From positions 1,054,001 through 1,118,000 of the forward strand of contig NZ_CP064356.1 of assembly GCF_018141545.1 (NCBI RefSeq): a stretch of 64,000 nucleotides of DNA, given 5' to 3'. Shown here piece by piece: positions 2,298 through 64,000 of the stretch. The position numbers were made by a program, and so were the translations under genes. The notes under the pieces were generated by a model, which saw nothing but the letters and a program-made list of their open reading frames with translations, searched no databases and was not told the origin of the DNA. How positions within the stretch are numbered: the stretch's first letter is position 1; the number at the start of each line of letters is the position of its first letter. This DNA is from Miltoncostaea oceani (GTDB taxonomy: Bacteria > Actinomycetota > Thermoleophilia > Miltoncostaeales > Miltoncostaeaceae).

Positions 2298-2304
2298 CGG
2301 GGCC

Positions 2305-3278: not shown

Positions 3279-4111
3279 CCCCGGCGGCCGTCGCGCCCGA
3301 CGGCTTCGGGGCCCGGCTCGCCGCCGCCGTCGCGCAGCGGGCCAGCCAGGTCGTGCTGGGACTCGACCCCGACCCGCGCCGTGTGCCGGGCGGGGCGGAG
3401 GGCGCCCGGGCGTTCTGCCGCCGGGCCATCGCCGCCGCCGGCCCGGCGTGCGTCGCCGCGAAGCTCCAGCTCGCGTCGTTCGAGCGCTTCGGGACGGCGG
3501 GGTGGGAGGCCTTCGAGCGGGTCGCCGCCGCGGCGGCCGACGCCGGCCTGCTGGTCATCGCCGACGCCAAGCGCGGGGACGTCGACGTGACGAGCCGCGC
3601 CTACGCCGAGGCGTTCCTGCGCCCGCCGATCGACGCGCTCACCATCAACCCGTCGCTCGGCGGCGACGCCGTCGCGCCGTTCGTCGAGGCCGCCGCCGCG
3701 AGCGGCCGCGGGCTGTTCGCCCTCGTGCGCACCTCGAACCCCGGGGCGGCCGAGCTGCAGGACCTCCCCCTCGCCTCCGGCGGGCTCTGGCACGAGGAGG
3801 TCGCCCGCCTCGTCGCCGGGTGGGGCGCGCCGAGCGTCGACTCCTCCGGACTGTCGTGCCTCGGCGCCGTCGTCGGCGCCACCGTCCCCGGGCGCATGGC
3901 GGCGCTGCGGGAGCTCATGCCGCACCAGCCCCTCCTGATCCCCGGCGTCGGCGCACAGGGCGGCCGGCCCGAGGACCTCGGCCCCGCGTTCGGCGGCCGC
4001 GCCGCCGGCGCGCTCGTCTCGGCGAGCCGGTCGATCATCTTCGCGGAGAGCCCCCGGCGGGCCGCCGAGGAGCTGCGGACCGCCCTGTGGAGCGCCTTCG
4101 AGTCCTCGTAG
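3275..4111 (+). CDS. pyrF: Orotidine 5'-phosphate decarboxylase
   Basis: PyrF converts OMP to UMP, the last step of de novo pyrimidine synthesis. The 278-residue protein has the core motif DAKRGDVDVTS with the catalytic Lys and Asp residues, the early substrate segment VLGLDPDP, and a late LLIPGVGAQGG loop that binds phosphate. Length and motif order fit the longer type-2 PyrF common in actinobacteria. GTG 3275 overlaps the transporter stop (GTGA); the frame extends upstream inside the transporter gene, but those residues do not match the family. A strong hairpin follows the stop. Confidence 0.93.
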   Translation: MTPAAVAPDGFGARLAAAVAQRASQVVLGLDPDPRRVPGGAEGARAFCRRAIAAAGPACVAAKLQLASFERFGTAGWEAFERVAAAAADAGLLVIADAKRGDVDVTSRAYAEAFLRPPIDALTINPSLGGDAVAPFVEAAAASGRGLFALVRTSNPGAAELQDLPLASGGLWHEEVARLVAGWGAPSVDSSGLSCLGAVVGATVPGRMAALRELMPHQPLLIPGVGAQGGRPEDLGPAFGGRAAGALVSASRSIIFAESPRRAAEELRTALWSAFESS

Positions 4112-4116
4112 CCGCC

Positions 4117-4154
4117 CCCCGCGGGCGCCGGCCGGACCTCCGGCCCCCGCGGGG
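4117..4154. terminator. Hairpin between convergent pyrF and the isochorismatase-like gene
   Basis: CCCCGCGGG at 4117-4125 pairs perfectly with CCCGCGGGG at 4146-4154, and GGCCGG at 4130-4135 pairs with CCGGCC at 4140-4145, leaving an ACCT loop and a 4-nt bulge on one side. There is no U tract, as is usual in this GC-rich DNA. It sits between converging genes and could end both transcripts. Confidence 0.6.
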
Positions 4155-4200
4155 AGCGCTCTCCGTCCCGCGCGCGGGCGGGATGGCAACAGGTGACGGG

Positions 4201-4749
4201 CTACGAGGCCGGGGCGTCCAGGAGGGTGCCGATCGCCTCCGCGGACAGTACCTCCACACCTGCCCGCGTGCGGGCCGCCAGCCTCCGCCCACGTTCCACC
4301 GCGCCCTCCTCGCAGGCGTCCGTGGCGTCGTCGGCGACGACCGTGCGGAAGTGGCGCGACAGCGACTGCGAGGCCGCGGCGTCGCAGCAGGCGAGGCTCA
4401 TCGGGCCCGCGACGACGACGGCCTGGACCCCGCGGGCCCCGAGCACCTCGGCCAGCCCCGTGCCGGCGAACGGGTCGGGGTGGGGCGAGTCGAGGACCGA
4501 CTCCCACCCGGTCGGCGCGACCTCCGGGGGCTCGCCGGCCAGGGCCGTCGCCGCCTCGCCCGCGCCGGGCGCGGCGCCCGGCAGGTGCCGCACGTGCACG
4601 ACGTGCGCGCCGGTGGCCCGCGCATGGGCGAGCAGGGCGGCGGCGCGGTCGAGCGCGGGGGCGTCCGGCACGCCGTGGAAGGGGGCGCCCGGGGAGGCGA
4701 TCATGAGGATGGCGGTGCGCTCGGGGTCGAGCGGGGCGGCGGCGATCAC
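4201..4749 (-). CDS. Isochorismatase-like cysteine hydrolase, probably degenerate
   Basis: The 182-residue protein has the alpha/beta layout of isochorismatase-fold cysteine hydrolases, with a first strand AILMIAS, a nucleophile region SLACCDAAASQSL and a following strand TVVADDATDAC. Two of the three usual catalytic residues are missing: the Asp of the first strand (normally a V-I-D-x-Q type segment) is Ala, and no Lys is found before the central helix (GWESVLDSPHPDPF). The Cys is kept. It may have a changed chemistry or be a non-catalytic relative. GTG 4749 is preceded by AGGAGGAG. It diverges from the carboxypeptidase gene. Confidence 0.7.
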   Translation of the reverse strand: MIAAAPLDPERTAILMIASPGAPFHGVPDAPALDRAAALLAHARATGAHVVHVRHLPGAAPGAGEAATALAGEPPEVAPTGWESVLDSPHPDPFAGTGLAEVLGARGVQAVVVAGPMSLACCDAAASQSLSRHFRTVVADDATDACEEGAVERGRRLAARTRAGVEVLSAEAIGTLLDAPAS

Positions 4750-47880: not shown

Positions 47881-48624
47881 GTGACGGGCGGAGAGGAACG
47901 CGCGGATCGGGACATCGGCCGGCTGGCGGCCGCCCTCGGCGACCCCACCCGTCGCCGGGTGTTCTTCGCGGTCCGCGCCGCCGGGCGCGACCAGTCGAAG
48001 GACGACGTCGCCGCCGCCGTGGGCATCGACCGCCGGCTCGCGGGCTTCCACCTCGACAAGCTCGTCGAGCACGGGTTCCTCGAGGCCGAGTTCCGCCGCG
48101 ACGCGGGACGCGCCGGGCCCGGCGCCGGCCGTCCGCCGAAGCGCTACCGGCCCGCGGAGGCCGAGGTGCTCGTCGCCCTGCCGGAGCGCCACTACGAGCT
48201 GCTGGCGTCGCTCCTGCTGCGCGCCTCGCGCGACCGCTCCGCCACCGACCCGCAGGAGGTGCTGGAGCGCGTGGGCCACGACTTCGGCTTCGAGCTCGGC
48301 CTCGCCGAGGTCGCCGCGGGCGGCACCGCCCCCGACGCGACGCCGGCCGAGGCGATCGAGGCCGTCGTGCGGCTCCTGTCGCGGTACGGCTTCGCGGCCC
48401 GCGCCGAGACCGGTCAGCGCCTCCGCGCCTGCGCCTGCCCCTTCGAGGAGCTCGCGTTCGACGACCCGGAGCGCATCTGCGGCCTCGACCGCGCCATCTG
48501 GCGGGGGATGCTGGCGGCGTTCGCCCCCGACGCCACCCTGCGCGTCGCGACCACCCGCGCCCGCGGCGACGAGGCCTGCGTCGCCTCGGTGGGCGAGGAG
48601 GCCCTCCCCACCGGCGTCAGGTGA
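47881..48624 (+). CDS. sufR: SufR-like Fe-S sensing transcriptional regulator
   Basis: The N-terminal winged helix (IGRLAAALGDPTRRRVFF, then GIDRRLAGFHLDKLVEHGFL) is of the COG2345 type used by SufR, which represses the SUF operon when it carries an Fe-S cluster. The C-terminal part has the cluster-binding pattern RACACPFEELAF, ERICGLDRAIWRGML and GDEACVASV; Cys 184, 186, 200 and 233 are candidates for ligands. GTG 47881 gives 247 residues. In many actinobacteria sufR lies directly before sufB; here one unrelated gene separates them. The family match is strong, the target is inferred. Confidence 0.83.
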   Translation: MTGGEERADRDIGRLAAALGDPTRRRVFFAVRAAGRDQSKDDVAAAVGIDRRLAGFHLDKLVEHGFLEAEFRRDAGRAGPGAGRPPKRYRPAEAEVLVALPERHYELLASLLLRASRDRSATDPQEVLERVGHDFGFELGLAEVAAGGTAPDATPAEAIEAVVRLLSRYGFAARAETGQRLRACACPFEELAFDDPERICGLDRAIWRGMLAAFAPDATLRVATTRARGDEACVASVGEEALPTGVR

Positions 48625-50383
48625 GCCGGACCGCCGTCGTCGCCACCACCGTGCCGCCCGCGCGGAGCGTCGCGCGGTAGAGGCCGGCGGGCAGGCGCCC
48701 CGACGAGCCGCCGATGAAGGCGACCACCGTCGGCGCGAACGCCTTGCGCGTCGCCCCGCCCGCCACCCGGTCGTCGCGGGTCCAGGTCACCGTGATCCGC
48801 CGGCCCTTCGCGGGGCGGGCGGAGAACACGAAGTGCGCGAAGATCCGCCGGCGGGCGCTCAGGCCGCGCGCCGCCGGGCCGTTCTGCAGGCCGCTGACGA
48901 ACGCACGCCGCACGACGCCCTCGGGCGGCGCCGCGAGCCGCGCGGCGGCGACGGCGTCGGTGAGGGCGGGACCGGGCGGGGTGCCGACCTCCCGCAGCCG
49001 CACCCGCAGGGGGCCGGGGGCGAGGCGCGGGGAGAGCACGACGCGCTGCCGGAACGGGCCGCCGGCGAGCGTCACCACCTGCCGCTGCAGCACCCGCTCC
49101 GACCGGCCGGCGCCCCGCAGCAGGGCGATCTCGACGCGCCCGCCGCGGGCGGCCGCGCCGGTCACGCGCACCGCGCCCCGCACGCGGCTGCGGTTCCAGC
49201 GCGCCGTGACGCGCGCCGAGACGATGGTCAGCGACGGCCGCGCCGCCGCGGGCCCGGGCGGCGGGGGCGGGTCGACGGTCGCCGTCCGGGGGAGCGACAG
49301 GCCGCCGCCGGCCGGTGACGTGAAGACCGTGACGGGGGCGGTGCCGGCCGACGCGACGTCGGCGGCGGTGAGCTGGGCGGTGAGGCGGGTGGGGGAGACG
49401 TACGTCGTGGGGCGGTCCGCCCCGTTCCACCGCACGACCGAGCGGAGCACGAACCCCGTGCCGTCGACCGTCAGCGTCGCCCCCGGCCCCCCCGCGACCG
49501 GTCGGGAGAGCCCCGTGATGTCCGGCGGCGGCCCGAGCGGCTGCCAGTCGGGGTCGCTGTCCTGGACCCCCGCCGCGGTGAGGGTGTTGCGGATCTCGAT
49601 CGAGCCGTCGGCCTGCATGACGTAGATCTCGGAGTTGCCCGCCTCGCGGAAGCTGGCGAACGCGATGAGCCGACCGTCGGGGGAGACCGCCGGCTCGTAG
49701 TCGGCCGCGGGGTCGTCGGTCAGCGGCACGGGGGCGGAGCCGTCGGGGGCGACGCTCCAGATGTCGCCGGAGCGCTCGACGGCGAGGCGGCTGCCGTCCG
49801 GGAACCAGTTCGGCCGCGTCGCCGAGGGGAGGATCTGCACGGGGTCGGTGCCGTCCGCCCGCATCACCGAGATCCCGGTCCCGCCGGAGAAGTGGCGCCA
49901 CGCGATGCGGGTGCCGTCGGGCGACCACGCGGGGCCGAGGTTGATGTTGTCGTTGGAGGTGATCGGCCGCGGGTTCGAGCCGTTGGCGTTCATCACCACG
50001 ATTTGCGCGGTGGCGTCGCCGAACCCGCGGAACGCGATGCGGGTGCCGTCGGGCGACCAGGCCGGGTCGGACTCGCTGACCGGCGACGATGTCAGCCGGG
50101 CCTGGTCGGAGCCGTCGGCGTCCATCACCCAGATGTCGTCGCCGGTGCCGCGGTCGGCGGTGAACGCGATGCGCAGGCCGTCGGGGGACCACGCGGGGTC
50201 GCGCCCGCCGAGCGTCGTCAGGGCCTCGTCGTTGGAGGACCCCTCGTCCTTCACCCAGATCTGCCCGTCCTTCTCGTAGGCGATCTTGCCGTTCAGCCCG
50301 GGGAACGCGCCGACGGCCGCCCCCGGCAGGGCGAGGAGGGCCGCGGCGGCCGCGAGGGCCGCGACGGTGCGGGCCCGGGTCAG
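48617..50383 (-). CDS. Secreted PD40 propeller with TIG domain, paralogue 1, CTG start
   Basis: A 588-residue secreted protein: signal peptide, AFPGLNGKIAYEKDGQIWV, six PD40/TolB propeller repeats with the pattern PAWSPDGTRIAFRG, an IPT/TIG Ig-like domain (ATLTVDGTGFVLRSVVRWNG), a beta-domain, and a C-terminal domain with SARRRIFAHFVFSARPAKG. Two close paralogues lie at 54531-58120. No ATG, GTG or TTG precedes the signal peptide in frame. CTG 50383 has GGAGGG 6 nt upstream and overlaps the stop of the regulator gene as CTGA. It ends overlapping sufR by 8 nt on the other strand. Confidence 0.8.
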   Translation of the reverse strand: MTRARTVAALAAAAALLALPGAAVGAFPGLNGKIAYEKDGQIWVKDEGSSNDEALTTLGGRDPAWSPDGLRIAFTADRGTGDDIWVMDADGSDQARLTSSPVSESDPAWSPDGTRIAFRGFGDATAQIVVMNANGSNPRPITSNDNINLGPAWSPDGTRIAWRHFSGGTGISVMRADGTDPVQILPSATRPNWFPDGSRLAVERSGDIWSVAPDGSAPVPLTDDPAADYEPAVSPDGRLIAFASFREAGNSEIYVMQADGSIEIRNTLTAAGVQDSDPDWQPLGPPPDITGLSRPVAGGPGATLTVDGTGFVLRSVVRWNGADRPTTYVSPTRLTAQLTAADVASAGTAPVTVFTSPAGGGLSLPRTATVDPPPPPGPAAARPSLTIVSARVTARWNRSRVRGAVRVTGAAARGGRVEIALLRGAGRSERVLQRQVVTLAGGPFRQRVVLSPRLAPGPLRVRLREVGTPPGPALTDAVAAARLAAPPEGVVRRAFVSGLQNGPAARGLSARRRIFAHFVFSARPAKGRRITVTWTRDDRVAGGATRKAFAPTVVAFIGGSSGRLPAGLYRATLRAGGTVVATTAVRLT

Positions 50384-51119: not shown

Positions 51120-51455
51120 ATGCCGTTCGTGGTAACGACCAATGCCAGGATCGTCTGCATCCACGGCGGCCAGGTGCAGCTCGCGCCGAAGCAGGCGACG
51201 GTGACCATCCAGGGGGCACCGGTGCTGCGCGAGACGGACATCATGGGCGCCCCGATCGTCGGATGCGCCCAGCCGCCCACGATCTCCTCCAAGCCCTGCA
51301 CGACGGTCGTCGCGGTGCTGCCGGGTGGCAGCGCGCCGACCGTGACGGCGGGCGGCATGCCCGTCCACACCGACGTCCTGTCGGGGATGACCGACGGGGT
51401 GCCGCCCGGGACCGTGATGGTCGTCTCGCCCGGGCAGACGACGGTCCAGGCGTGA
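51120..51455 (+). CDS. PAAR-like (DUF4280-type) protein
   Basis: A 111-residue protein without signal peptide. VCIHGGQVQLAPKQATVTI followed by GAPVLRETDIMGAPIVGC resembles the PAAR repeat (HGG, V-x-G-x-P, metal-binding His/Cys), and the end SPGQTTVQA is like DUF4280 PAAR-like proteins. Such proteins cap the spikes of type VI secretion or extracellular contractile injection systems. No sheath, tube or baseplate genes are visible here. Candidate metal ligands are Cys13, His15, Cys49 and Cys60. ATG follows GGAGGGG. The kinase gene starts 49 nt downstream. Confidence 0.65.
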   Translation: MPFVVTTNARIVCIHGGQVQLAPKQATVTIQGAPVLRETDIMGAPIVGCAQPPTISSKPCTTVVAVLPGGSAPTVTAGGMPVHTDVLSGMTDGVPPGTVMVVSPGQTTVQA

Positions 51456-51504: not shown

Positions 51505-54500
51505 GTGCCGCGCGAGGGCGAGCGCGTCGGCCGCTACGAGATCGTCCGCGAGATCGGCCGCGGCGGCATGGCCGCCGTGTACCTCGCCCGCCAGACCGAC
51601 CTCGACCGCGACGTCGCCCTGAAGCAGCTCGGCGCGTTCCACGCCACCGACCCCGCCGCCGCGGCGCGCTTCCTGCAGGAGTCGCGCATCACCGGCTCCC
51701 TCGGCCACCCGAACATCGTGACGGTGCACGAGTACCTGCAGCACGACGGCACCCCCTACATCGCGATGGAGTACCTGGAGCGGGGGTCGCTGCGGCCGCA
51801 CGTGCGGGGCCTCGGCCTGGCCCAGGTCGCCGGGGTGCTGGAGGGGGTGCTCGCCGCCCTGTCACACGCCTCCGAGCAGGGCATCGTGCACCGCGACCTG
51901 AAGCCCGAGAACCTGATGCTGACGCGGGCCGGGACGGTGAAGGTCGCCGACTTCGGCATCGCGAAGGCCGTCAACGAGGTCCAGACGAGCTTCGCGACCG
52001 CGACGGGCACCACCGTCGGCACCCCCGCCTACATGTCGCCGGAGCAGGCGATGGCGAAGGGCGTCGGCCCGCCGACCGACCTCTACGCCGTGGGCGTGAT
52101 GGCCTACGAGATGCTCGTCGGCCGCGTCCCGTACATGGCGGACACGCCCATCGCGGTGCTGCTGCAGCACGTCAACGAGCCGCTGCCGTCGCCGGCGCAG
52201 GTGCGCCCCGACCTCGACCCCGAGCTCGCGCAGTGGCTCGAGGCGATGCTGGCGAAGGCGCCCGCCGACCGCCCGCCCGACGCCGCGGAGGCGTGGGACC
52301 GCCTCGAGGGCATCGTGATCCGCATCCTCGGCCCCCGCTGGCGCCGCGACGCCCGCCTGCTGGAGGGGCCGGGCGCCGCCGCCGCCGCGCCGCTCACCCC
52401 CGCCCCGTTCGACAGCATCCAGGCGCCCGCGACGCCCGCCCCGCAGAACCGGCCGGCGTCCCCGCCGCCGGCGACGACGGCGCCGCCCGTCACCCCCGCC
52501 CCCCCGCCCGAGGCGCCGCCCGCACCCGCGGCGCCGCCTCCGGCCCCGGCGCCGACCGGGTTCGAGACGTTCGCCCGCGGCGCCGAGGCGTCGCCCCCGG
52601 CCGCACCCGCCCCCCCGGCGGCGGCCCCGCCTCCGGCCCCCGCGCCCTCCGGCTTCGAGACGTTCGCCCGCCCGGGCGCCGCGCCCGGCCCGGCCGCGCC
52701 CCCCGACGCCCCCGTCGAGCGCGCGGCGCCCGCCGCGCCCGAGGCGGCCGACGACGGCTTCCGGACGTTCGCCCCCGGCGGGGCGCCGACCCCTCCCGCC
52801 GCCCCGCCGTCGCCGCCGGAGCCCCCCGCGGCCGACGCGCCGCCGCCGCCCACGCCGCCGCCCCCCGCCGCCCCGCCGCCGGAGCCGCCGCACGCGGAGG
52901 AGCCCCCGCCGGCGGACGAGCCGCCGCCCGCCGGGGACGACGCGCCCGGTCCCGAGCTCGAGCTGACGGTGCCGCCGCGGTCGCGGACGCCCCCGCCGAT
53001 CACGGCGCCGACGGAGGCGCCCGGGGCGCCCGCCGACGCGCCCGCCCGCCGGCGCACGCCGCTGCTGATCGGCGGCGCCGCGATCGTGGCCGCGGGCGCC
53101 GCGGCGCTCGTGCTCTCCCTGGGAGGCGGGGGCGGTGACGACGGGACCACGCCCGTCGCGGACCCCGGTCCCTCCACGACCCCGCTCGCACCCGACCTCG
53201 TGCTGGAGGACGCCCCCGCCGTCGCCGCGGGCGGCGGCTCCGTGGTCGTCGCGGACCCCGCCGGGCGGGTGGTGCGGGTCGCCGACGGCGCCGCCGCCGC
53301 GACGCTGGCCGACCCGGCGGGCCCGCGGGCCGTCGCCGTCGGCGGTGGCGGGGTCGTCGTCGCCGACGGCGCGACGGTCACGGTCGCCCGGGCCCGCGAC
53401 CTGCGGACTCTGTCGGCGGTCGCCTTCCCGGGGGCGGTCGCCCTCGCCGCCGCCTCGGGCGACGTCGCGGTGGCGGGCGCCCCGAGCGGCGACCGGGGAC
53501 GGGTCTGCCGGGTCGCGACCGGGGGCCTCGGGCCCTGCGCGGCGCTCGACTTCGCGCCCACCGGGCTGGGCATGACCGCCGGGACCGTCGCCGTGGCCGA
53601 CGGGGGGGCGGGGCAGGTGGTGCTGCTGCGCGTCAGCGGCGGCGCCCTGGTGCCCGGCACGCCCATCCCCGTCGGCACCGCGCCGCACGGGCGGATCGTC
53701 GAGGACCGCGGCCGGCTCTACGTGCCGGTCGAGCGCGGCGTCGCGGCCGTCGACGTCGCCACGGGCGCGACGGTCGGCACGTTCGCCACCCCGACGACCC
53801 CGGCGGACATCGGCGTCGTCGCCGCGACCGGGGTCATCGTGGCGGCGCTGCCCGGCAGCGACGCCGTCGCCCTCATCGACACCACGCAGGCCGCCGCCGA
53901 GCCCCGCCTCGTCGCGCTCGGCGCGACCCCCGCGGCGATCGCGGTGACCGCCGCCGGGGTCCAGGCCCTGACGACCGACGGCGCGCTCGTCCCGGTCGAC
54001 CCGGCCGCGGGGACCGCGGGCGACGCCGTCCCGGTCGAGGGGTTCGGGGACGACGTCGCCCCCGCCGCGCAGCTGACCCGCGTGACGTCGTCGGTGTCGG
54101 GGCGTCGCGTGACGATCACGCTCGACCTCGCCGAGGGCTCCCTCGACGCCTCGGGCCTGCGGCTCACCGACCGGTCGATCGGCGACGGCCGCGCCGCCCT
54201 CGAGCTGTGGCAGGGCGGCATCACCACCGGCGTGCGCACCGCGACCGCCGCCGGGGTGCGCGTCTCGGTCGCGCCCCGGGCGGGGCGCCTCGTGGTGGGC
54301 CTGTCGGCCCCGGCCCGCCGGTTCCAGACGCTCGCGGCCCGGCTCGCCCGTGGCGGCTCGGCCGTCTCCGTGGTGCTGCTGGAGCGGCCGCCGGAGGTCA
54401 CGCCGTCGCCGTCTCCGACGCCGGGCCCCAGCCCGACGCCGAGCCCGTCACCGAGCCCGAGCCCGACGCCGAGCCCGAGCCCCACCCCGAGCCCGGACCC

Positions 54501-54534
54501 GACGCCGCCCCCGCCCGACTTCGAGACCGGCTAG
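51505..54534 (+). CDS. Membrane Ser/Thr protein kinase with extracellular beta-propeller sensor
   Basis: A 1009-residue PknB-like kinase. The kinase domain (about 10-270) has [12 protein letters not shown], Lys40, HRDLKPENL (Asp131), DFGIAKA (Asp149) and [13 protein letters not shown] Pro/Ala-rich cytoplasmic linker (about 290-510) holds three copies of the motif GF(E/R)TFA at residues 352, 383 and 418. One membrane helix follows (about 518-540), then an extracellular propeller of NHL/YVTN-like repeats (about 560-850), a beta-domain and a Ser/Pro/Thr tail ending PPPPDFETG. It probably senses an envelope ligand. It follows the PAAR-like gene and converges with the propeller-TIG operon (shared CTAG stops). 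Confidence 0.9.
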
Positions 54535-56306
54535 CGCAGGCGCACCGACGCGACGGCGACGATGGTCCCGCCGGCGCGCAGCTCGCACCGCCACGTGCCC
54601 GCCGGCAGGCCGCCGGCCAGGCCCACGAAGGAGCTGACGACGCGTCGCCGGGGCTTCCCGTCGGCGCGCGTCGAGATCCCGCCCGGCCCGAACCACCGGG
54701 TCGTGACCCGCCGCCCGTTCTTCGGGAGGGCGGCGAACCGGAACGTGGCGAAGATGCGGGACTTGCCCCGCAGCGTCCGCGCGGGCGGGCCGTTCTGGAT
54801 GGCGCTGACGAAGCTGGTGGCCACCACGCCGGTCGGCGGGGCGGGGATGCGCACGACGCGTGTGGTCCCGACGAGCGCCGCACCGCCGCCGGGGGCGGCA
54901 CCGGCCTCGATCATCCGCAGCGTGTAGGAACCGGGGACGAGCGTGCGGGACAGGGGCACCGTGCGGGTGAACGCGCCCGCCGGCAGGTTCAGCACCCGCC
55001 GCTGGGCGACCTTCCGCCCCTTCAGCAGCGCCACCTCGACCCGGCCGGCGCGCTCCAGCGTGCCGGTGACGCGCAGGGTCCCGCGCAGGCGGCTGCGGGT
55101 CCACGTCAGCTTCGACAGTCGGGACGTGCCGATCAGGATGCGCGGCGGGGGCGGCGGGGGCGCCGGCACCACGGCGTTCACCGGCGCCGAGAGGCCGCCA
55201 CCGCTCGGCGACGTGAACACCGTGACCGGGACGGACCCGGGCGCCGCGACGTCGGCGGCCGTCAACGCCGCCGTGACGCGGGTGGGGCTGACCCAGGACG
55301 TCGGCCGGTTGGAGCCGTTCCAGCGGACGACCGACCGCGGGACGAAGCCCGTACCGTCCACCGTGAGGGTCGCGCTCGGCGCGCCCGCGACGAGCGGGAC
55401 GGGGAACCCGCGGATCACGGGGACGGGGCCGATCGGCCGCCAGTCGGGCGAGAAGTCGAGTCCGGCGGCGGTCGCCTCCGCCGTCTCGGCCCCGCCTCCG
55501 GCCGCCGACACCGTGAAGAGGTCGTAGTTCGGGGGTGGTCCGCTCGAGACGAACCGGCTGTAGAGGATGCGGGTCCCGTCGGGGGACCAGACGGGCCGGG
55601 CCGCCGGGCGGCCGTCGAGCACCGACGTCCCGCCGGTGCCGTCGGCGTTCACGATCTGCAGGCGCTGGATGTCGGTCCGGGACACGATGATGCGGGTGCC
55701 GTCCGGGGAGAAGTCCGCCTGGACCGCGTCGGCGAGGAACGGCGCGCGACCGGCGCCGGTCGCGCCGACGATCGAGAGGCCGCCGACGCTGTCGTCGTTG
55801 AAGACGACGCGCGTGCCGTCGGGCGTGAAGACGGGGAGGTCCTGGTCGCTTGCGCCACCGGCCACGGTCAGGCGCAGGCCGTCGGAGAGCGGCTGCACGA
55901 CCACGTCCTCGTCGGTGCCGTTGTTCACGGCGTAGGCGATGCGGGTGCCGTCGGGGCTCCACGCGGGCTCCGACGCGTCGCCCGCGCCGACGGAGAACTG
56001 CGCGGCGCCGGAGCCGTCGGCGTTCATCGTCCAGATCGCGGGTGAGCCGCCGCGGTCGCTGACGAACGCGAGGCGCAGGCCGTCGGCGGACCACGCGGGA
56101 TCGGAGTTCGTGCCCGTGGTGCCCCCGGCGAGCGGTGTCCCGCCCCCGAGGTCGCCCGGGTTCTTGACGACGATCTGGCCGTCGCGGTCCATGGCGATCA
56201 CGCCGTTGAGCCCGGGGAACGCGGCGACGGCGGGGCCGGCGGTCGCGGCGGCGCCGACGAGGGCGGCCACCGCCAGGACGATCCTGCGCACGGGGCGCCT
56301 CCTCAT
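54531..56306 (-). CDS. Secreted PD40 propeller with TIG domain, paralogue 2
   Basis: A 591-residue paralogue of the proteins at 48617 and 56303. It has a signal peptide (RRIVLAVAALVGAAATAGPA), the start AFPGLNGVIAMDRDGQIVV, PD40 repeats such as EPAWSPDGTRIAYAVNNG, a TIG domain (ATLTVDGTGFVPRSVVRWNG), a beta-domain and the shared C-terminal domain with KSRIFATFRFAALPKNGRR and a final VRL. The ATG overlaps the stop of paralogue 3 (ATGA). It is the last gene of the minus-strand operon. It is extracellular with unknown ligand. Confidence 0.83.
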   Translation of the reverse strand: MRRRPVRRIVLAVAALVGAAATAGPAVAAFPGLNGVIAMDRDGQIVVKNPGDLGGGTPLAGGTTGTNSDPAWSADGLRLAFVSDRGGSPAIWTMNADGSGAAQFSVGAGDASEPAWSPDGTRIAYAVNNGTDEDVVVQPLSDGLRLTVAGGASDQDLPVFTPDGTRVVFNDDSVGGLSIVGATGAGRAPFLADAVQADFSPDGTRIIVSRTDIQRLQIVNADGTGGTSVLDGRPAARPVWSPDGTRILYSRFVSSGPPPNYDLFTVSAAGGGAETAEATAAGLDFSPDWRPIGPVPVIRGFPVPLVAGAPSATLTVDGTGFVPRSVVRWNGSNRPTSWVSPTRVTAALTAADVAAPGSVPVTVFTSPSGGGLSAPVNAVVPAPPPPPPRILIGTSRLSKLTWTRSRLRGTLRVTGTLERAGRVEVALLKGRKVAQRRVLNLPAGAFTRTVPLSRTLVPGSYTLRMIEAGAAPGGGAALVGTTRVVRIPAPPTGVVATSFVSAIQNGPPARTLRGKSRIFATFRFAALPKNGRRVTTRWFGPGGISTRADGKPRRRVVSSFVGLAGGLPAGTWRCELRAGGTIVAVASVRLR

Positions 56307-58120
56307 CTCACGACGACGCGGGCCGTCGCCACCGTGGTGGTGCCGTAGCGCAGCACCGCGCGCCACGCGCCCCGCGGCAGCGGACCGGACCCCTTGATGA
56401 ACGCGATCACGAGCGCCGACGGCGGTTTGCGGTCGACCGCCGCGGGCCGGCGCGTGCCGGGGGCGTACCAGCTCACCGTCAGGCGCTTGCCGGGCTTCGG
56501 GCGGGCCGCCATCCGGAAGTGGGCGAAGATGATCGACCGGCCCGTGATGCGGGCGAGCGGCCGCCCGTTGATCTTGGTGCTGAAGTAGGCGCGCGCGGCG
56601 ACGCCCTCGCGGGGCGCCGGCACGACCGCGCGGCGCTCGGCGACGGGCAGCAGCCCAGGGCCGGTGCCGACCTCGGCGACGCGCACCAGGTAGCGGCCGG
56701 GCAGCAGGGTCGGCGGGAGGGTCAGCCGGCGGGTGAACGGGCCGGCGGCGGTCGCCCGGAACGTCCGCGTCACCAGCGCCCTGCCCTTCCCGTTCGCCCG
56801 CAGCACGCGCATCCGCAGCACGGCGGGGCGGGTGACGGCGCCGGTGAGGACGAGGCGCCCGCGCAGGCGGCTCGCGGTCCAGCGGTTCTGCACGGCGGCG
56901 CCCGCGATCGTCAGGCCGGGGGCGGGCGGCGGCGGCTGGACCGTGAACGGCAGCGCACCGGAGGTGCCGCCCCCCGTCGGGCCGGTGACGACCGTGACCT
57001 GCGCCGTGCCGGCGCCGGCGAGGTCGCTCGCCGGGATGGCGGCCGTGAGGCGGGTGGAGCTGACGAAGGTCGTCGCGCGGTCCTGACCCTGCCAGCGGAC
57101 GCGCGAGCGGAGGGTGAAGCCGGCGCCGTCCACCGTCAGCGTCAGCGCGGCCGAGCCGGCGGGCGCCGTCGACGGGCTGATCGCCGAGAGGAACGGGAGC
57201 GCCGCGACGGTCTGCCAGGAGGGGTTCGTGTCGGCGCTGGGGCTCGTGGTGAGCTGCACCGGGGCGTTCTCGGTGCCGGGGTACCCCGTCGTCCAGATGT
57301 CCCAGTTGGAGGTGCGGAAGCTGGCGAACGCGATCCGGGCGCCGTCGGGCGACCACGAGGGCGTCACCGCCCCGTTCGGGTCGTTGGTGTGCTGGCGCAG
57401 GTCCGTCTCGACGGGCGGGGTGCCGACGGGCGTTCCCGCGGCCGGCAGCGAGAAGATGTTCGACTGGGACCCCGGGCGGACGCTGTCGAACGCGATCCGT
57501 GAGCCGTCGGGCGACCAGCTCGGGGAGTTGCCCGGCGTCGTCGTCACCTGGCGGGCGTCCACCTCGGTGCCGCTCGCCGCGACCCGGTGGATGTTCCCCA
57601 TGCTGCGGCCGCTGCGGAAGGCGATGGCGGTCCCGTCCGGCGACCACGCCGGCTCGTCGTCGAAGAAGGCGCCGTTGTTGGTGTGCTGGATCAAACCGGT
57701 GCCGTCGAGGCGCGCCGAGAAGATCTCGAGGTCGCTGCCGTCGCGGAGGGACGCCCAGGCGATGCGGGTGCCGTCGGGCGACCAGGCGGGGTCGATGTCG
57801 GCCCCCGGCGTCGTCGTGAACGGCACGACGTTGGTGCCGTCGGCGGCGGCGATGAAGACGTCCTCCTCGCCGTTGTCGTTGCGCGTGAACGCGAACCGGG
57901 TGCCGTCCGGCGACCATGCGGCGTCGTCGTCGGCCTCGACGGTGGAGGTGCGCTGCGTCTCCGGGTCGCCGCCCGGCGGCATGGTGTAGATGTCGCCGCT
58001 GGTGGTGCGGGCGCTGGTGAAGGCGATCAGGCCGTCGAGGCCGGGCGTCGTCGCGAGGCCGGGCGCGGCGAGCGCCCCGGCGGCGGCGAGCGCGCCGGCC
58101 GCGAGGAACGCCCGCCTCAC
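56303..58120 (-). CDS. Secreted PD40 propeller with TIG domain, paralogue 3
   Basis: A 605-residue secreted protein with signal peptide (RRAFLAAGALAAAGALAAPG), the start TPGLDGLIAFTSARTTSGD, about seven PD40 repeats such as PAWSPDGTRIAWASLRDG, a TIG domain (LTLTVDGAGFTLRSRVRWQG), a beta-domain and the C-terminal domain with SIIFAHFRMAARPKPGKRL. GTG 58120 overlaps the stop of the giant hydrolase gene, so translation is coupled. Its cotranscription with wall hydrolase genes suggests a role in binding or presenting envelope components. Confidence 0.83.
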   Translation of the reverse strand: MRRAFLAAGALAAAGALAAPGLATTPGLDGLIAFTSARTTSGDIYTMPPGGDPETQRTSTVEADDDAAWSPDGTRFAFTRNDNGEEDVFIAAADGTNVVPFTTTPGADIDPAWSPDGTRIAWASLRDGSDLEIFSARLDGTGLIQHTNNGAFFDDEPAWSPDGTAIAFRSGRSMGNIHRVAASGTEVDARQVTTTPGNSPSWSPDGSRIAFDSVRPGSQSNIFSLPAAGTPVGTPPVETDLRQHTNDPNGAVTPSWSPDGARIAFASFRTSNWDIWTTGYPGTENAPVQLTTSPSADTNPSWQTVAALPFLSAISPSTAPAGSAALTLTVDGAGFTLRSRVRWQGQDRATTFVSSTRLTAAIPASDLAGAGTAQVTVVTGPTGGGTSGALPFTVQPPPPAPGLTIAGAAVQNRWTASRLRGRLVLTGAVTRPAVLRMRVLRANGKGRALVTRTFRATAAGPFTRRLTLPPTLLPGRYLVRVAEVGTGPGLLPVAERRAVVPAPREGVAARAYFSTKINGRPLARITGRSIIFAHFRMAARPKPGKRLTVSWYAPGTRRPAAVDRKPPSALVIAFIKGSGPLPRGAWRAVLRYGTTTVATARVVVR

Positions 58121-61100
58121 CGGGCCCCCCCGGCGGACAGCAGCGCGCGCGCCTCCTCGAGTCGCAGCTGGTAGCGGCCCCGGTACTGCTCGGCGGGTCT
58201 CTCGACGTCCGCGATCCACTCGCCGTAGCGCGCCGGGTCGGTGCCGAAGGCGCTGTACCCCTCGGCGAGGCGCTTCTCCTTGAGGGCGACCGCGTGGTCG
58301 ATGAACCACTTCATCTGCAGCTCCGGGTTGTCCGCGTATCCGGCGTACTCGCCGCGGTCCCAGACGCTGACGCGCATCTGGAAGAACCCGAGGGAGTCCG
58401 CGTGGCCGTGGTCGAGGTTTCTCAGGCCACTCTCCACCAGCCCCGCCATCACCGGCAACTCGGGCGGGAGGCCGGCGGCCTGGGCGCGGCGGGCCATCCA
58501 CATGGCGACCTGCTCCTTCGGGGCGGCGTCCCCGGGGTATGCGTCGGCGGCGGCCGAGAGGTCGACCGCCGGGGGTGGCGCCGACGGCGCGGCGGGATCG
58601 GCGGGCGGGACCCCCGGGGCGGCCGGGGCCCCCGGCGTGACGGGGGGCGCCGGGGTCACGGCGGGCGGGGCCGTGGCGGGGGGCGCCGGTGGCGAGGCCG
58701 GGGCGGGCACGGCCGGCAGCACCCGGGCGGTGTTGGGTCGCGCGATGGCGGGCCCGTCGTCCGGCGCGGCGGGACCGGGCACCGCGCCGAACACGGCGCT
58801 GGCCCGCCCCGCGCTCGGCGGGCCCTCGGGGGCGGCGGAGGCCGGCGGGGGCGCGGCGGCGACGGAGGGGGCCGGGGCGACGGGCGCCGGGGCCGATGCC
58901 GGTGCCGGTGCCGGCGTGACGGGGGCGGGGGGGACCGGGGCGGCGACCGGCGCGGGGGGCGGGGCGGCCTGGCCGGCGGGCGTCGCGATCGACCCGTCGG
59001 GGTCCCCGCCGAGCTCCCCGTAGAGGATCCGGACGTTGCGGAGCCAGTTCGAGTTGAGGTTCGTCGGGTCGTTCGCGGTGCCGACCGGCGCGTAGCGCGC
59101 CTGGATCTCCGGGAACGTGTCGAGGCCGTCGTCGATGTACCCGGTGCGCAGGCCGCGCGCGACCGTCGAGATGTTCTCCTCCCAGCTCGGGAACGGCTTG
59201 TGCGGTCCCCACCCGAACGCGTTGTTGATCGACACGGCGCCCGGGTCGGAGCCGAGGGAGCTCTCGGCGCGGGCGATCGCCACCAGCGCCCGCGGGTCGA
59301 TGCCGTTGAGGCGCCCCTCGCGCACGAACACCGCGCCGTAGCCCTCGAGGGGCGCGCCCGGGTTCTTGCGGGCGATCCAGGCGTCGAGCTGCGCGGCGAG
59401 CTGCTGGTCCTGGGGGCTGAGGCTGGCGAGCGCCTCGGCGGGGGCGAGGGCGCCCGCTCCCGAGGGCGCGGGGGCCGGGGGCGCCGACGGGTCCACGGGC
59501 GGGGTGGCGGCCACGGGCGCGGGCGCCTGCGACGGCGCCGGGGCGACGGGCGCCGGGGCCGGCGCCACCGGGGCGGGGGCGGGAGCGGGCGCCACCGGGG
59601 CGGGGGCGGGAGCGGGCGCCACCGGGGCGGGGGCGGGGGCGACGGCTGGGGGGGGGCGGGCGCGCCCGGCGCGGCGGCGGGGGCGGGCGCGGGGACGTCG
59701 CCCGCCCGGTAGCCGACCTCGATGCGGTTGCGCAGCCCGGGCTCGGTGAAGAAGCCGTCGCCCTTGATGCGCCAGGGGGTGCCGACCTCCGACGGGCGCC
59801 CCGACGGGTCGAGCGCCGCCAGCTCCTCCGCGAGGTCGCGGGCGTCGACGTTCGTCGGGTCGACCGGCTTGCCGTTGACGCTGCTGATCACGATGCGGCT
59901 CACGCCGCCCTCGGTCTCGACGGAGGTGATGCCGATCTCGTAGCGGTCGGAGACGTTCGCCAGCATGGGGATCGCGCGCGGGTCGAGGTCCTTCGCCAGC
60001 AGCTCCGACGCCACCGCCGGGGCCGCCACGACGTTCGGGTCGGCGACCACGTCCTCGGGCCGCAGCGCCACCGGCACGGGGGCCGGCGCGGCGACCGGCA
60101 CCGGCGGGGCGCCGGGCACCGGCGCCCCCGCGACCGGCGGCACGCCCCCGACGGGCACCGGCGCGGCCCCGCCCCCCTGGTACAGCGCCTGGAGGTAGGG
60201 GAGGGGGTCCTCCATGTTCGACACGTTGTAGCCGCCGGACAGCGACTTCCAGATCTCGATGTGGGTGTGCTCGGGCCCGTCGGTCCAGGGGCTCGTCACC
60301 GCGATCTGGGTGCCCGCCGCGACCTGCTGGCCGACGGTCACGGAGCCGGGCGTCACGTGCCGGAACACCCACACCTTGCCGTCGGCGCCCTGCAGCTTCA
60401 CGGTGCCGCCGAAGATCTGGCCGGAGGTGCCCCGCGACGCCCGCACCTCGACGATCGTCCCGGCGAACGGGGCGCGGATCGGGGCGTTCTCCTCCGTGAA
60501 GAAGTCGTACGCGGCGTGGTAGCTGCCGCCGGCCCCCGGCGCCCCCTCGGCGTCGCGGCCGTTGAACTCCGACGCGTGCAGCTTGCCGCCCGCGTTCGTG
60601 TTGTTCATGAGGGACGGGTCGACCGGCTGCACGCTCGGCACGACGGGCGCCGCGACGGGGGCGTCCGCGAACGCCTCGATGCGGTCCTCGCCGTGCCCGG
60701 GCGGCGACGAGGCGAACCGCTGCGGGTCGTCCCCCGTCGCGACCGCCATGCCGGAGCCCCCGTCGACGCGGGCGGCGAACAGGCGCCGGGAGGGGGCGCT
60801 GCGCCCCTCCGAGCGGCACACCGGGCACAGCACGGAGCCGAGCGGGGCGGGGCCGCCGCACGAGTCGCACTTCGCGAACTGCGGGGGCTTGTCGGGGTCC
60901 TTCAGCAGGCAGACGGGGCACGACGGGACGTCCGCGGCGTCCGAGAGGCCCGCCGGCGCGACGTCGGCGGAGTCCTGCACGGCGGGCATCGCCCGGGACA
61001 GGGCCGCGGCCGCCTCCCACCGCCCCGCCCCCTCGTCGCCGCGGACGTGCTGCACGAGCTCGGCGATGCCGACCCCCTCGGCCGCGGCGGCGAGCAGCAC

Positions 61101-61298
61101 CCCCGCCAGGCTCGACCGCGACTCGCGCACCTCGAGCGTCTGGAACGCGCGTCCGCCGTCGCGCCCCAGCTCGGCGGCGACCTCGTCGAGCTCCATCGCC
61201 CGGCACGCCGCCGCCGGGTCGCGGCGGAACTCCGACCGGAAGCGGTCGTCGGTCAGGAGCCGCGCCAGCATCTGCGCGGCGGCGCTATCCGACGGCAC
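58117..61298 (-). CDS. Giant wall hydrolase with leader-like N-terminus, frameshifted at a C9 run
   Basis: Domains in order: a leader-like segment without signal peptide (1-85, LARLLTDDRFRSEFRRDPAA, similar to Nif11/Os1348-type RiPP leader regions); zinc-ribbon Cys pairs (127, 130, 144, 147, 158, 161); an M23 LytM domain (about 250-350, HAAYD and HTHIEI); a beta-domain; Pro/Ala repeats; a lysozyme-like module (IDPRALVAIARAESSLGSD); a long Pro-rich linker; and a lytic transglycosylase domain (GLVESGLRNLDHGHADSLGF). The frame breaks at the G9 run 59648-59656; ten Gs would join both halves. GTG 61298 overlaps the previous gene. The product is over 1050 residues if repaired. The leader assignment is inference. 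Confidence 0.75.
59561..59641. repeat. Three tandem 27-bp repeats
   Basis: The unit GGCGCCACCGGGGCGGGGGC plus GGGAGCG is repeated at 59561-59587, 59588-59614 and 59615-59641, the last with one change. On the coding strand each unit encodes a nine-residue Ala/Pro/Val repeat. Such repeats readily expand or contract. Confidence 0.85.
59648..59656. other. Homopolymer of nine Gs at a frameshift point
   Basis: On the minus coding strand this is a C9 tract. Upstream sequence is coherent in one frame and downstream sequence in another; adding one base, or removing two, restores a single frame. It is either an assembly or sequencing length error or a slippage-based phase switch. Confidence 0.8.
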
Positions 61299-62958
61299 CG
61301 GCCGCTCCCCCGCCCCCGCGCCGGCGCTGCAGCAGCGGGCGCGCCACCACCGCGATCACCGGGACGAACAGCAGACAGTAGAGGGCGCCGAGCACCGTCC
61401 ACACCACCTCCGGCGGCGCGATCGCCGTCAATCGGTCGTAGTAGAGGAGGGACAGGAGTATGACGAAGCCCGCCGCGGCGATCATCCACGCCAGTGACAG
61501 CAGGCTGTAGATCCGGAGCCCCCGGCCCTCCTCGCCGGCGACCGGCGCGGCCCCCGACAGCCGCCGGTCGAGGCGGTCGCGCGCCCGCTTGCGCAGGCCG
61601 GGCTCGCCGAGGCGGTCGACGAGGATGTGGTACCCGTCGCGGTCGAGGAACGGGTTGAGGTTGTAGAAGGCCCCGATGTAGGCGGCGAGGGCCACCTGGT
61701 AGACGACGTCGCGGGTGTTGCCGGCGGGCAGCGACCAGGCGACGAGACCCGCCGCCCCGCCCACCACGAGGTCGGCGACGGGCCCGGCGGCGCTGATCGC
61801 CATGCGCCGCCGGCGGGGCTCGAACCACGCCTCGGTGGTGTCGACGAACGCGAACGGCAGGCCGAGGATCGCCTTCACGCCGGCGCGTGGCACCGTGCGC
61901 CCGAACGAGGCCATCGCCAGGCCGTGCGCGATCTCGTGGACCGCGACGACCAGGGCGCGGCCGGCGATGAAGACGAGCCCGCCGATGCCGATGCGGTCGG
62001 CGACCACGAAGGGCGTGCCGCCGCGTCCCACGATCAGGGCGGTGAAGGCGATCAGGCCCGAGACGGCGACGAGCGCGAGGGCGATCAGCCCGGTGCGGGT
62101 GAACAGCACCCAGCCGCCCCGCCGGTAGAGGCGCTCGAACCACGCCCCCGCCCCCGGGAACGCGCGCTCGCGGGGCCGGGTGAGGCGGCCGAGGAGGCCC
62201 TCCCGCGCCCGCCGCTCGGGCGCGTCGACGCCCTCGAGCAGCCCCCGCTCCCCGAGGTCGGCGAGCAGGCGCGCGAGCCGGCCGACCCCGTTGTCGCCGT
62301 GCACGCGCTCCGCCTCGGCCATCAGCTCGGGCAGGGAGGTCTCCCCGTCGAGCATCTGCACGAGCGCCGCGTCGGCGTCGCCCATGCGCAGCAGGTCGGG
62401 CATGTGCTCGCTCGACAGCACGTACCGCAGCCGCCCCTCGCCCTCGGCCATCCGCTTCAGCTTCCAGCCGGGGCGCATGCGGGGGCGGAACCCCGCCTGG
62501 GTCCCCGCCTGGGTGACGTGGGCGCCCCCCGTCGCGGCGACCACGACGCTGCCGTTGACGGGCACCACGACCGTCCGCCCGGCCTCGGCGTCGTCGCGGT
62601 GGCGCTCGACGCGCAGCTCCACGTCTCCGACGGAGATCGCCGACCCGTCGCGGAGCGGCGCGGGCCCGCCGACCGGGTGCCCGTCGAGGAGGGTGCCGTG
62701 GCTCGACCCGGCGTCCTCCAGCACGGCCCCGGCGGCCGAGACGGTCACCCGGGCGTGGGTCCGCGAGACGCTGCGGTCCTCCAGGCGCACCGTGCTCGCG
62801 GGGGACCGCCCGATGGTCGTCGCGTCGGCGAGCGGCACCCGCGCCCCGCCGGGCAGCACGAGGTCGAGGGCGGCCGTGCGGCCGTCGACGGCGACGCCGC
62901 ACGCGTGGCAGAACGGGTCGCCACGGCCGACCTGTCGCCGGCACGACCGGCAGAGCAC
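61285..62958 (-). CDS. Zinc-ribbon / FHA / PqqD-like / M50 membrane metalloprotease
   Basis: A 557-residue multidomain protein. Residues 3-20 form a CxxC...CxxC zinc ribbon; residues 31-118 an FHA domain (TTIGRSPASTVRLEDRSVSR, then SSHGT) that would bind phosphothreonine; residues 165-242 resemble a PqqD-type peptide-recognition element (RYVLSSEHMPDLLRMGDADA and EAERVHGDNGVGRLARLLAD). From 288 on are membrane helices with the M50 protease motifs HEIAH (341-345) and NLNPFLDRDG (433-442). PqqD-M50 fusions occur in RiPP pathways. The next gene encodes a protein with a leader-like N-terminus, a likely substrate. GTG 62958 lies 3 nt after the upstream stop. Confidence 0.82.
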   Translation of the reverse strand: MLCRSCRRQVGRGDPFCHACGVAVDGRTAALDLVLPGGARVPLADATTIGRSPASTVRLEDRSVSRTHARVTVSAAGAVLEDAGSSHGTLLDGHPVGGPAPLRDGSAISVGDVELRVERHRDDAEAGRTVVVPVNGSVVVAATGGAHVTQAGTQAGFRPRMRPGWKLKRMAEGEGRLRYVLSSEHMPDLLRMGDADAALVQMLDGETSLPELMAEAERVHGDNGVGRLARLLADLGERGLLEGVDAPERRAREGLLGRLTRPRERAFPGAGAWFERLYRRGGWVLFTRTGLIALALVAVSGLIAFTALIVGRGGTPFVVADRIGIGGLVFIAGRALVVAVHEIAHGLAMASFGRTVPRAGVKAILGLPFAFVDTTEAWFEPRRRRMAISAAGPVADLVVGGAAGLVAWSLPAGNTRDVVYQVALAAYIGAFYNLNPFLDRDGYHILVDRLGEPGLRKRARDRLDRRLSGAAPVAGEEGRGLRIYSLLSLAWMIAAAGFVILLSLLYYDRLTAIAPPEVVWTVLGALYCLLFVPVIAVVARPLLQRRRGGGGAAGAVG

Positions 62959-62961
62959 GGG

Positions 62962-64000
62962 TTACCCGGAGGCCGGGGGCGCCCAGACGGGGCTGCCCGA
63001 GGCGGCGTCGAGCCGGCTGAGGAGCGTCTGCGCGTTCGGCCGGGCGGGGTCGACCCGCACGATCCGCCCGCGCTCGTCGCAGGTGGAGTTGCGCTGGGCG
63101 ATGGCCAGCTCGGCGCCGTCGGGCCGCCAGCTCAGCTCGCACGCCGCGACGAAGGGCTGCTGCTCGGCCTCCGTCCCGATCACGCCGTCCGCCACGGGGA
63201 GCGTCCACAGCGTGAAGGTGGTGCTCCTCCAGTTGGCCGAGAACGCGAGGCGGGTGCCGTCGGGGGAGAAGGCGGACGACAGCACCTGGTCGGTCTTGCG
63301 GTCCTTGTGCATGCCGTCGGTGATCAGTCCCTGCGAGGTCCAGTCACCGGGCGCACCCGAGGAGGGGACGACGGACGTGAGGAGCTGCAGCTCGGTCTGG
63401 CCGGCGTCCTCGCCGTCGGAGGCGGTGACGAGCAGCGACCGCCCGTCGGGTGACCACGTCGGGCGGCTGACGGCGACGTCGCGGTCGGCGATGCACTTCG
63501 GGGCGGCGTTGGTCGCGTCGAGCCGGGCGAAGCAGACGTCGTAGTCGTCGGGGCGGCTTCCGCGGTTCGAGACGAACGCGACGACGGCGCCGTCGGGTGA
63601 GATCGCCGGGCGGCGGTCGTCGAAGCCGGCGTCGGTGAGCGGGCGCGCCGAGCGGGGGTCGGAGGGGTCGATGACCCAGATCTGGGCGGACGGCGCGACG
63701 CCCTTCGTGGAGCCCTCGGGGCCGCGGCGGTAGGCGATCACCGGCGCCGCGAAGGACGCGTTCGGCTGCTCCTCGACGTCCTCGCTGGCCGCGATCGGCT
63801 CGACCGGCTCGCCGGTCGCGCCGCCCACCCGGACGATGTCCCCGTTCGCGTCGTGGATCACGGCGGGGTACCCGCGGGAGATGGTGATCGCGATGGTCGC
63901 GCCGGGGCCGACCTCGGTCCCTGCGGCGGGCTGCTGGGCCAGGACCGTCCCGGCCGGCACCTCGGCGCTGGCCGCGCTCAGCACGCCCGGCACGAGGCCG
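62962..64000 (-). CDS. C-terminal part of a PASTA-domain / PD40 propeller protein, probably a Ser/Thr kinase (partial)
   Basis: The frame is open at the right edge, so the N-terminus is missing. The visible 346 residues begin with a PASTA domain (PGVLSAASAEVPAGTVLAQQ, then EVGPGATIAITISRG), which binds muropeptides or beta-lactams, followed by a PD40 beta-propeller with RRPAISPDGAVVAFVSNRG, RPTWSPDGRSLLVTASDG and SSAFSPDGTRLAFSANW. PASTA repeats usually form the outer part of PknB/StkP kinases, so a kinase domain may lie outside the window. It is the first visible gene of the minus-strand operon and lies 3 nt from the FHA-M50 gene. Confidence 0.75.
   Translation of the reverse strand, partial: GLVPGVLSAASAEVPAGTVLAQQPAAGTEVGPGATIAITISRGYPAVIHDANGDIVRVGGATGEPVEPIAASEDVEEQPNASFAAPVIAYRRGPEGSTKGVAPSAQIWVIDPSDPRSARPLTDAGFDDRRPAISPDGAVVAFVSNRGSRPDDYDVCFARLDATNAAPKCIADRDVAVSRPTWSPDGRSLLVTASDGEDAGQTELQLLTSVVPSSGAPGDWTSQGLITDGMHKDRKTDQVLSSAFSPDGTRLAFSANWRSTTFTLWTLPVADGVIGTEAEQQPFVAACELSWRPDGAELAIAQRNSTCDERGRIVRVDPARPNAQTLLSRLDAASGSPVWAPPASG

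What the first reader, a model, noticed from the sequence alone, without database searches (positions are those of the whole stretch)
58117..64000. Possible leader-guided, phospho-regulated export or processing system for a giant wall hydrolase
Seen: a tight operon encodes a PASTA/propeller protein, then a zinc-ribbon/FHA/PqqD-like/M50 membrane protease, then a multidomain M23/lysozyme/transglycosylase protein that has no signal peptide but starts with an 85-residue segment like the leaders of Nif11/Os1348-type RiPP precursors. Known: PqqD-like elements bind leader peptides, M50 proteases cut within membranes, FHA domains bind phosphothreonine. Inference: the protease recognises the leader and releases or escorts the hydrolase, under kinase control.
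Basis: partly seen in the sequence, partly recalled or inferred. Interest (0 to 1): 0.8.

Follow-up and report, generated by a model that had tools for sequence, protein, structure and literature searches.

The report
Leader-guided wall hydrolase beside injection machine
An actinobacterium encodes, at the end of a phage-tail-like injection machine operon, a membrane protease with a domain that in other systems grabs peptide leaders, and right after it a large cell-wall-cutting enzyme that begins with just such a leader; a dozen related genomes keep this pairing, which suggests that bacteria have borrowed a peptide-antibiotic recognition trick to handle a big enzyme.

Summary
In order on the minus strand lie the end of a PASTA/propeller gene, a zinc-ribbon/FHA/PqqD-like/M50 protease (61285-62958), and a wall hydrolase (58117-61298) that overlaps it by 14 nt.

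Both halves of the proposed recognition pair were tested. Residues 155-262 of the protease are predicted (pLDDT 84) as a RiPP recognition element; the top PDB matches are RRE-leader complexes. All 11 N-terminal segments match NHLP/Os1348 RiPP-leader models. In the class sample, 12 genomes carry the protease; all 12 have the leader directly downstream and a CIS. Five CIS-bearing genomes lack both. The leader stays constant while the hydrolase domains behind it change. The pair recurs without a CIS in two distant actinobacteria.

Most likely the RRE binds the leader and the M50 protease processes or gates the hydrolase at the membrane. Binding, cleavage and kinase control remain unshown.

The parts
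62962..64000 (-). C-terminal part of zinc-ribbon/TM/PASTA/PD40-propeller protein (gene continues beyond the window); sits directly after the baseplate genes, the position of CisA in Streptomyces
61285..62958 (-). Zinc-ribbon/FHA/RRE/M50 intramembrane protease, 557 aa
62614..62847 (-). FHA domain (aa 38-115)
   Evidence: Pfam FHA 8.5e-15; FHA structures of GarA, OdhI and TB39.8 matched
62224..62496 (-). RiPP recognition element (PqqD-like winged helix, aa 155-245)
   Evidence: AF2 pLDDT 84; Foldseek top hits 5v1v, 6jx3, 8t19; VIA Z 7.9-9.2 to cyanobactin heterocyclases, TruD, lasso B1, TbiB1, PqqD
61609..61971 (-). M50 catalytic core (HEIAH aa 341-345, NPFLDRDG aa 435-442) in a region with hydrophobic segments
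58117..61298 (-). Leader-bearing multidomain wall hydrolase gene (GTG start at 61298), split here by a frame change at C9 59648-59656
61113..61298 (-). NHLP/Os1348-type leader (helical, aa 1-62)
61053..61139 (-). Conserved box TLEVRESRSSLAGV plus borderline-hydrophobic stretch (aa 54-82), candidate recognition/cleavage site
60816..60920 (-). Cys-rich zinc-ribbon-like segment of the hydrolase (aa 127-161)
   Evidence: sequence
60246..60521 (-). Peptidase M23 domain
59648..59656 (-). C9 tract at the frame break
58984..59445 (-). Glucosaminidase/lysozyme-like domain
58123..58560 (-). SLT transglycosylase-like domain
51505..54534 (+). Ser/Thr protein kinase with a membrane segment and C-terminal repeat domain; neighbour conserved in every complete locus read
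   Evidence: Pkinase 2.8e-47; HRDLK, DFG
51120..51455 (+). PAAR-like CIS spike-tip protein
   Evidence: (weak, E 0.013)

Best explanation
The protease is a membrane-bound handler for the hydrolase encoded next to it. Its cytoplasmic RRE binds the hydrolase's NHLP-type leader, placing the conserved RES[RK]SSLAGV box and the hydrophobic stretch behind it at the membrane. There the M50 site cuts, or holds, the leader. This keeps a dangerous wall hydrolase tethered or inactive until it is needed, and then frees it. The FHA domain and neighbouring Ser/Thr kinase probably supply the trigger. The pair is an accessory of a contractile injection system whose membrane anchor is probably the PASTA/TM protein (CisA position); the freed hydrolase would open the producer's wall so that the system can fire or particles can leave. 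Shown here: gene layout, domain identities, RRE fold prediction, leader family, strict co-occurrence, intact active-site motifs. Inferred: binding, cleavage site, trigger, and the wall-opening role.
For: RRE fold: AF2 pLDDT 84; top PDB matches are RRE-leader complexes 5v1v and 6jx3 (prob 1.00, TMt 0.70-0.71) and PbtF RRE 8t19 (0.98); VIA Z 7.9-9.2. PqqD models hit in 3 of 11 and 4 of 11 orthologues. Leader: all 11 match NF038399 and TIGR04509, best 4e-10; outside the class's 13 strong genomes only three weak matches in 399. Co-occurrence: 12 of 12 protease genomes have leader plus CIS; five CIS genomes have neither, and in the complete chromosome G585 the PASTA gene is followed directly by PAAR. 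No protease orthologue without a leader in a 254-genome class sample. ORF overlaps. Cargo varies behind a constant leader: M23+GH+SLT, or 2-3 SLT with CHAP, NlpC/P60 and extensin-like domains. Recurrence without CIS: G443 (4 leader proteins, one protease) and G267 (FHA-RRE-M50, leader protein and kinase adjacent). M50 enzymes are established RiPP peptidases, and an RRE is required by lasso leader peptidases (PMC10885120).
Against: No complex could be modelled and no binding or cleavage was measured. The leader model is of low overall confidence (mean pLDDT 58; helices of the first 40 residues 74-81) and found no significant fold match. The Foldseek E-values for the RRE are 0.03-0.05, so the assignment rests on the consistency of the top hits. 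Most positive genomes are one class and mostly one family, so 12 of 12 is not 12 independent events. The kinase link rests on neighbourhood alone. The hydrolase frame is broken in this assembly.
Confidence: 0.52

Rival explanations
1. The leader is a loading tag: the hydrolase is a cargo/effector of the injection system, the N-terminal segment docks it into the particle, and the RRE-M50 protein is only an escort or trims the tag after loading.
For: Operon position at the end of a complete CIS. Hydrolase lacks a signal peptide, as expected for CIS cargo. Its SLT domain resembles a tape-measure SLT, and Streptomyces CIS effectors are tape-measure related (titles/abstracts of PMC11126660 and PMC13277306).
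Against: Known eCIS signals are short, very hydrophilic and without a conserved sequence (PMC11297309); this one is conserved and partly hydrophobic. The leader-RRE-M50 pairing also exists without a CIS. Five CIS genomes have neither gene.
Confidence: 0.22
2. The segment is an N-extended, atypical Sec-type signal: RESRSS is the charged part, LAGVLLAAA the hydrophobic core, AAA the cut site. The M50 enzyme merely clears the leftover signal or acts in regulated proteolysis.
For: The stretch is the most hydrophobic part of the hydrolase (Kyte-Doolittle 1.84 over 19 residues at aa 64-82) and has an AxA-like end.
Against: Sequence conservation of R58, E59, S62, S63 and E74 is unlike Sec signals. 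An acidic residue lies in the core. The G267 and G443 relatives keep the xSKSx(L/I) box with a poor or no hydrophobic core. A dedicated RRE would be unexplained.
Confidence: 0.13
3. The RRE-M50 protein serves an ordinary RiPP pathway; the hydrolase is an operon neighbour whose leader resemblance is evolutionary debris.
For: The closest named family is the daptide protease.
Against: No separate short precursor with this leader was found in the CIS loci; the leader model hits only the hydrolase. Families identified in the cluster are CIS parts, not RiPP modifiers. The leader is conserved and stays while the hydrolase domains change.
Confidence: 0.08

Closest known systems
RiPP leader peptidases of family M50 (EpeP/YydH-LiaK, daptide HExxH protease NF041824, TglG/TmoG)
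   Same: Membrane M50 core with intact motifs; daptide protease is the best-scoring named family (1.5e-33; 5e-40 in the best orthologue)
   Different: Below the curated cut-off (116.5 of 300 bits); carries FHA and zinc ribbon; the apparent substrate is a 600-1900-aa enzyme, not a peptide
RRE-dependent leader peptidases (lasso B1/B2 proteins, TbiB1)
   Same: RRE fold closest to TbiB1 and lasso B1 bound to leaders
   Different: RRE is fused to an intramembrane metalloprotease, not partnered with a cysteine peptidase; no cyclised product
NHLP/Os1348 RiPP precursors (TIGR04509, NF038399)
   Same: N-terminal 40 residues of all 11 homologues match
   Different: No short core peptide; a giant hydrolase follows; extra near-invariant RES[RK]SSLAGV box
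Streptomyces-type contractile injection system with CisA (PMC12237407)
   Same: Same kind of core genes; a single-pass membrane protein encoded just after the baseplate
   Different: PASTA/propeller outer part in place of the CisA C-terminal domain (homology to CisA not tested); additional RRE-M50 protease, leader hydrolase and kinase
Protein-sorting systems such as exosortase/PEP-CTERM (from memory, not tested)
   Same: One membrane protease, several proteins with a shared terminal tag (G443)
   Different: The tag is N-terminal and of RiPP-leader type; a dedicated RRE would read it

Membership tests
RiPP recognition element (PqqD-like) | Winged-helix RRE fold with N-terminal three-stranded sheet | tested here: met
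   (predicted structure)
RiPP recognition element (PqqD-like) | Binds a leader peptide | not testable with these tools
   No complex prediction or assay available
Pfam PqqD (PF05402) | Scores above the curated cut-off | tested here: not met
   No hit at E 0.001 in the own genome; 3 of 11 orthologues match, at best 0.0019
NHLP/Os1348 RiPP-leader clan | Profile match of the N-terminal segment | tested here: met
   TIGR04509 35.5 bits vs cut-off 34 for the isolated segment (33.0 in the longer protein); NF038399 34.2 vs cut-off 40, so below that one; 11/11 members match both models
RiPP biosynthetic cluster | Short precursor peptide with core plus a modifying enzyme | tested here: not met
   The leader precedes a 1000-aa hydrolase; the gene families identified in the cluster are CIS components
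Peptidase family M50 | HExxH and N-P-x(4)-DG motifs in hydrophobic segments | tested here: met
   Pfam M50 matches 11/11, best 1.2e-8, although the window's own copy is below the gathering score
Daptide intramembrane metalloprotease NF041824 | Curated cut-off (300 bits) | tested here: not met
   116.5 bits
eCIS cluster | Sheath, tube, hub, gp25, baseplate J, Pvc16, AAA ATPase, eCIS_core | tested here: met
eCIS cargo with known N-terminal loading signal | Short hydrophilic signal without a conserved sequence | tested here: not met
   Conserved 85-aa segment with hydrophobic stretch against the description in PMC11297309

The most novel reading that the evidence does not exclude
Actinobacteria possess a leader-guided protein-sorting system: an RRE fused to an intramembrane M50 protease reads an NHLP-type N-terminal tag with an xSKSx(L/I) or RES[RK]SS box on large, unrelated proteins (wall hydrolases in CIS operons, glycine-rich or acidic low-complexity proteins elsewhere) and anchors, processes or exports them. 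RiPP leader recognition would thus have been repurposed as a general protein address.
Probability: 0.27. Interest if true: 0.9.

Novelty: new variant of a known kind. Interest (0 to 1): 0.7.

Why it matters
RREs and NHLP leaders are known from making small modified peptides. Here the same pair sits on a membrane protease and on giant wall hydrolases within a phage-tail-like injection system. If true, it explains how a CIS producer keeps and releases a wall-cutting enzyme without a signal peptide. It also suggests a new kind of protein address that can be found by sequence in other genomes.

Tried and rejected
Pfam PqqD search of the own genome: nothing at 0.001, but the fold prediction recovered the RRE. 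Leader fold search in PDB: no significant match. Most other M50 relatives in the phylum (27-35% identity) show no neighbouring leader in the 4-20 kb read, so the pairing is not universal for this protease type. Leader hits in G482, G514, G636, G181, G201 and G210 are weak and cover mainly the first helices; not counted. The G710 leader is an isolated remnant without a nearby protease or CIS; not counted as a pair.

Full report
WHAT IS THERE. The window is C1:1054001-1118000 of a 4.5-Mb, three-contig genome with 76% G+C in the window. On the minus strand, in transcription order, lie the end of a zinc-ribbon/TM/PASTA/propeller gene (to 62962), a zinc-ribbon/FHA/PqqD-like/M50 protease (61285-62958) and a wall hydrolase (start 61298). 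The protease starts 3 nt after the PASTA gene ends, and the hydrolase start overlaps the protease end by 14 nt. Active-site motifs of M50, M23, SLT and the neighbouring kinase are present.

FRAME BREAK. The hydrolase is not one frame here. The N-terminal part (leader, zinc ribbon, M23) and the C-terminal part (glucosaminidase-like and SLT) lie in different frames that meet at a C9 tract, 59648-59656, the only G/C run of eight or more in the window. The same-genus genome G003 has one uninterrupted 1021-aa ORF. A sequencing error or a slippage mutation is the simple reading; one assembly cannot decide. The PASTA gene is also split, at different places in G000 and G003.

THE LARGER SETTING. The operon begins outside the window. 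Upstream lie sheath (PF04984/PF17482), tube (gp19), CIS_tube/LysM, hub, gp25, baseplate J (TIGR02243, 5.8e-133), Tail_P2_I, Pvc16_N, AAA+WHD ATPase and eCIS_core proteins. The PASTA protein follows the baseplate genes directly. That is the place of CisA in Streptomyces, a single-pass membrane protein needed for CIS firing (PMC12237407); homology between the two was not tested. A Ser/Thr kinase and a PAAR-like protein are encoded nearby.

THE TWO HALVES OF THE PROPOSED PAIR. AlphaFold2 with two sequences predicts protease residues 155-262 at mean pLDDT 84. Foldseek's best PDB matches are RREs: TbiB1 5v1v and lasso B1 6jx3 bound to leaders, PbtF 8t19; then TruD (E 0.03-0.09, prob 0.98-1.00). VIA-align gives Z 7.9-9.2 to heterocyclases, lasso B1, TbiB1, TruD and PqqD. 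PqqD sequence models reach only 3-4 of 11 orthologues at E about 0.002, so the fold evidence carries the assignment. For the hydrolase N terminus, all 11 members match the Os1348 and NHLP-related models (best 4.1e-10 and 1.9e-9), and the window's own segment exceeds the TIGR04509 cut-off. Its model is helical in residues 3-46 but of low overall confidence and gives no fold match.

CO-OCCURRENCE. In 399 genomes of the class, the leader model rings strongly in 13 and the CIS baseplate J in 17 (E below 1e-100). The protease orthologue (E below 1e-70) is in 12 of the 23 genomes flagged by either marker; all 12 have both leader and CIS. In each the leader begins at or within a few tens of bases of the protease's last codons. 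A 254-genome class sample contained no orthologue outside that set. Five CIS-bearing genomes (G011, G535, G585, G644, G753) have neither; in G535 and G585 the PASTA gene is followed by the PAAR region with no protease or hydrolase between, and in the G585 chromosome no kinase lies there. G011 and G753 loci end at contig ends, so for these the absence rests on the whole-genome search. The 13th leader genome, G710, holds an isolated remnant. These genomes are related, so the count shows consistency, not twelve independent events.

CONSTANT TAG, CHANGING CARGO. Behind the leader, G000 and G003 have M23, a glucosaminidase-like domain and SLT. G738 and G521 have three SLT, CHAP and NlpC/P60 domains, plus extensin-like regions, in about 1,870 aa. 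G593 has two SLT and NlpC/P60. G569 has SLT plus the extensin-like region in 636 aa. Within the leader the box TL[ED]xRES[RK]SSLAGV, the AAA and E74 are nearly invariant, which suggests a read or cut sequence.

RECURRENCE WITHOUT A CIS. In G267 an FHA-RRE-M50 protein (34% identity) is flanked by a glycine-rich protein with a leader (LDPRLSKSSLF) and by a Ser/Thr kinase gene. In G443 one M50 protein (32%) has three nearby leader proteins and a fourth on another contig, all with RxSKS boxes. G443 was noticed because its protease locus was already in hand, and G267's hit with the class-only model is weak (5e-4), so these are leads and not a statistical sample. No CIS genes were found near either.

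MECHANISM. Shown: the domains, RRE fold prediction, leader family, adjacency, joint presence and absence, and intact M50 motifs. From the literature: lasso leader peptidases require an RRE, and M50 enzymes such as EpeP cleave and perhaps export RiPPs (PMC10885120). Inferred: the RRE binds the hydrolase leader, the M50 site cuts at or after the conserved box near the membrane, and FHA plus kinase set the timing. In the CIS setting the likely purpose is to open the producer's wall at the right moment. The alternative that the leader is a particle-loading tag is taken seriously, but known eCIS tags are short, hydrophilic and not conserved in sequence (PMC11297309), and the pairing exists without a CIS.

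VERDICT. It is best filed as a new variant built from known parts (RRE, NHLP leader, M50 protease, CIS); if the non-CIS cases hold up, it may be a wider protein-sorting system.

Noticed in passing
window 59648-59656: C9 tract (- strand), the only G/C run of 8 or more in 64 kb, exactly at the frame break of the hydrolase; could be a sequencing error or a slippage switch.
   Followed up: partly
L002 about 1080-1280 (just beyond the window end) and L035 16854-17230: The PASTA/propeller gene is split between frames in both G000 and G003, but at different positions; it is one ORF in G050.
   Followed up: no
L118 8484-12594 (-); L148 4030-5076 (-): Genome G443 has four proteins with the NHLP-type tag and RxSKS box and one RRE-M50 protease, as in a multi-substrate sorting system.
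   Followed up: partly
L115 7742-12947: In G267 (9.9-Mb genome) a glycine-rich protein with the tag, an FHA-RRE-M50 protease and a Ser/Thr kinase are adjacent, without a CIS.
   Followed up: partly
window 61113-61298: The leader also weakly matches the IniB N-terminal domain model NF038175 (10 of 11 members, best 0.0012), hinting at a link to mycobacterial IniB.
   Followed up: no
window 48617-50308, 54531-56219, 56303-58120 (-): Three related TolB-like PD40 propeller proteins (one with a TIG domain hit) surround the kinase and PAAR genes; similar genes lie at the same place in G003.
   Followed up: no
L036 hydrolase (1550-4612) aa 912-972: The SLT domain matches a phage tape-measure family (phrog_10030, 9.1e-7), a possible phage origin.
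   Followed up: no
L037 and L112 (G050): Genome G050 carries two different CIS baseplate loci, one with the protease-leader pair and one without it as far as the contig goes.
   Followed up: no
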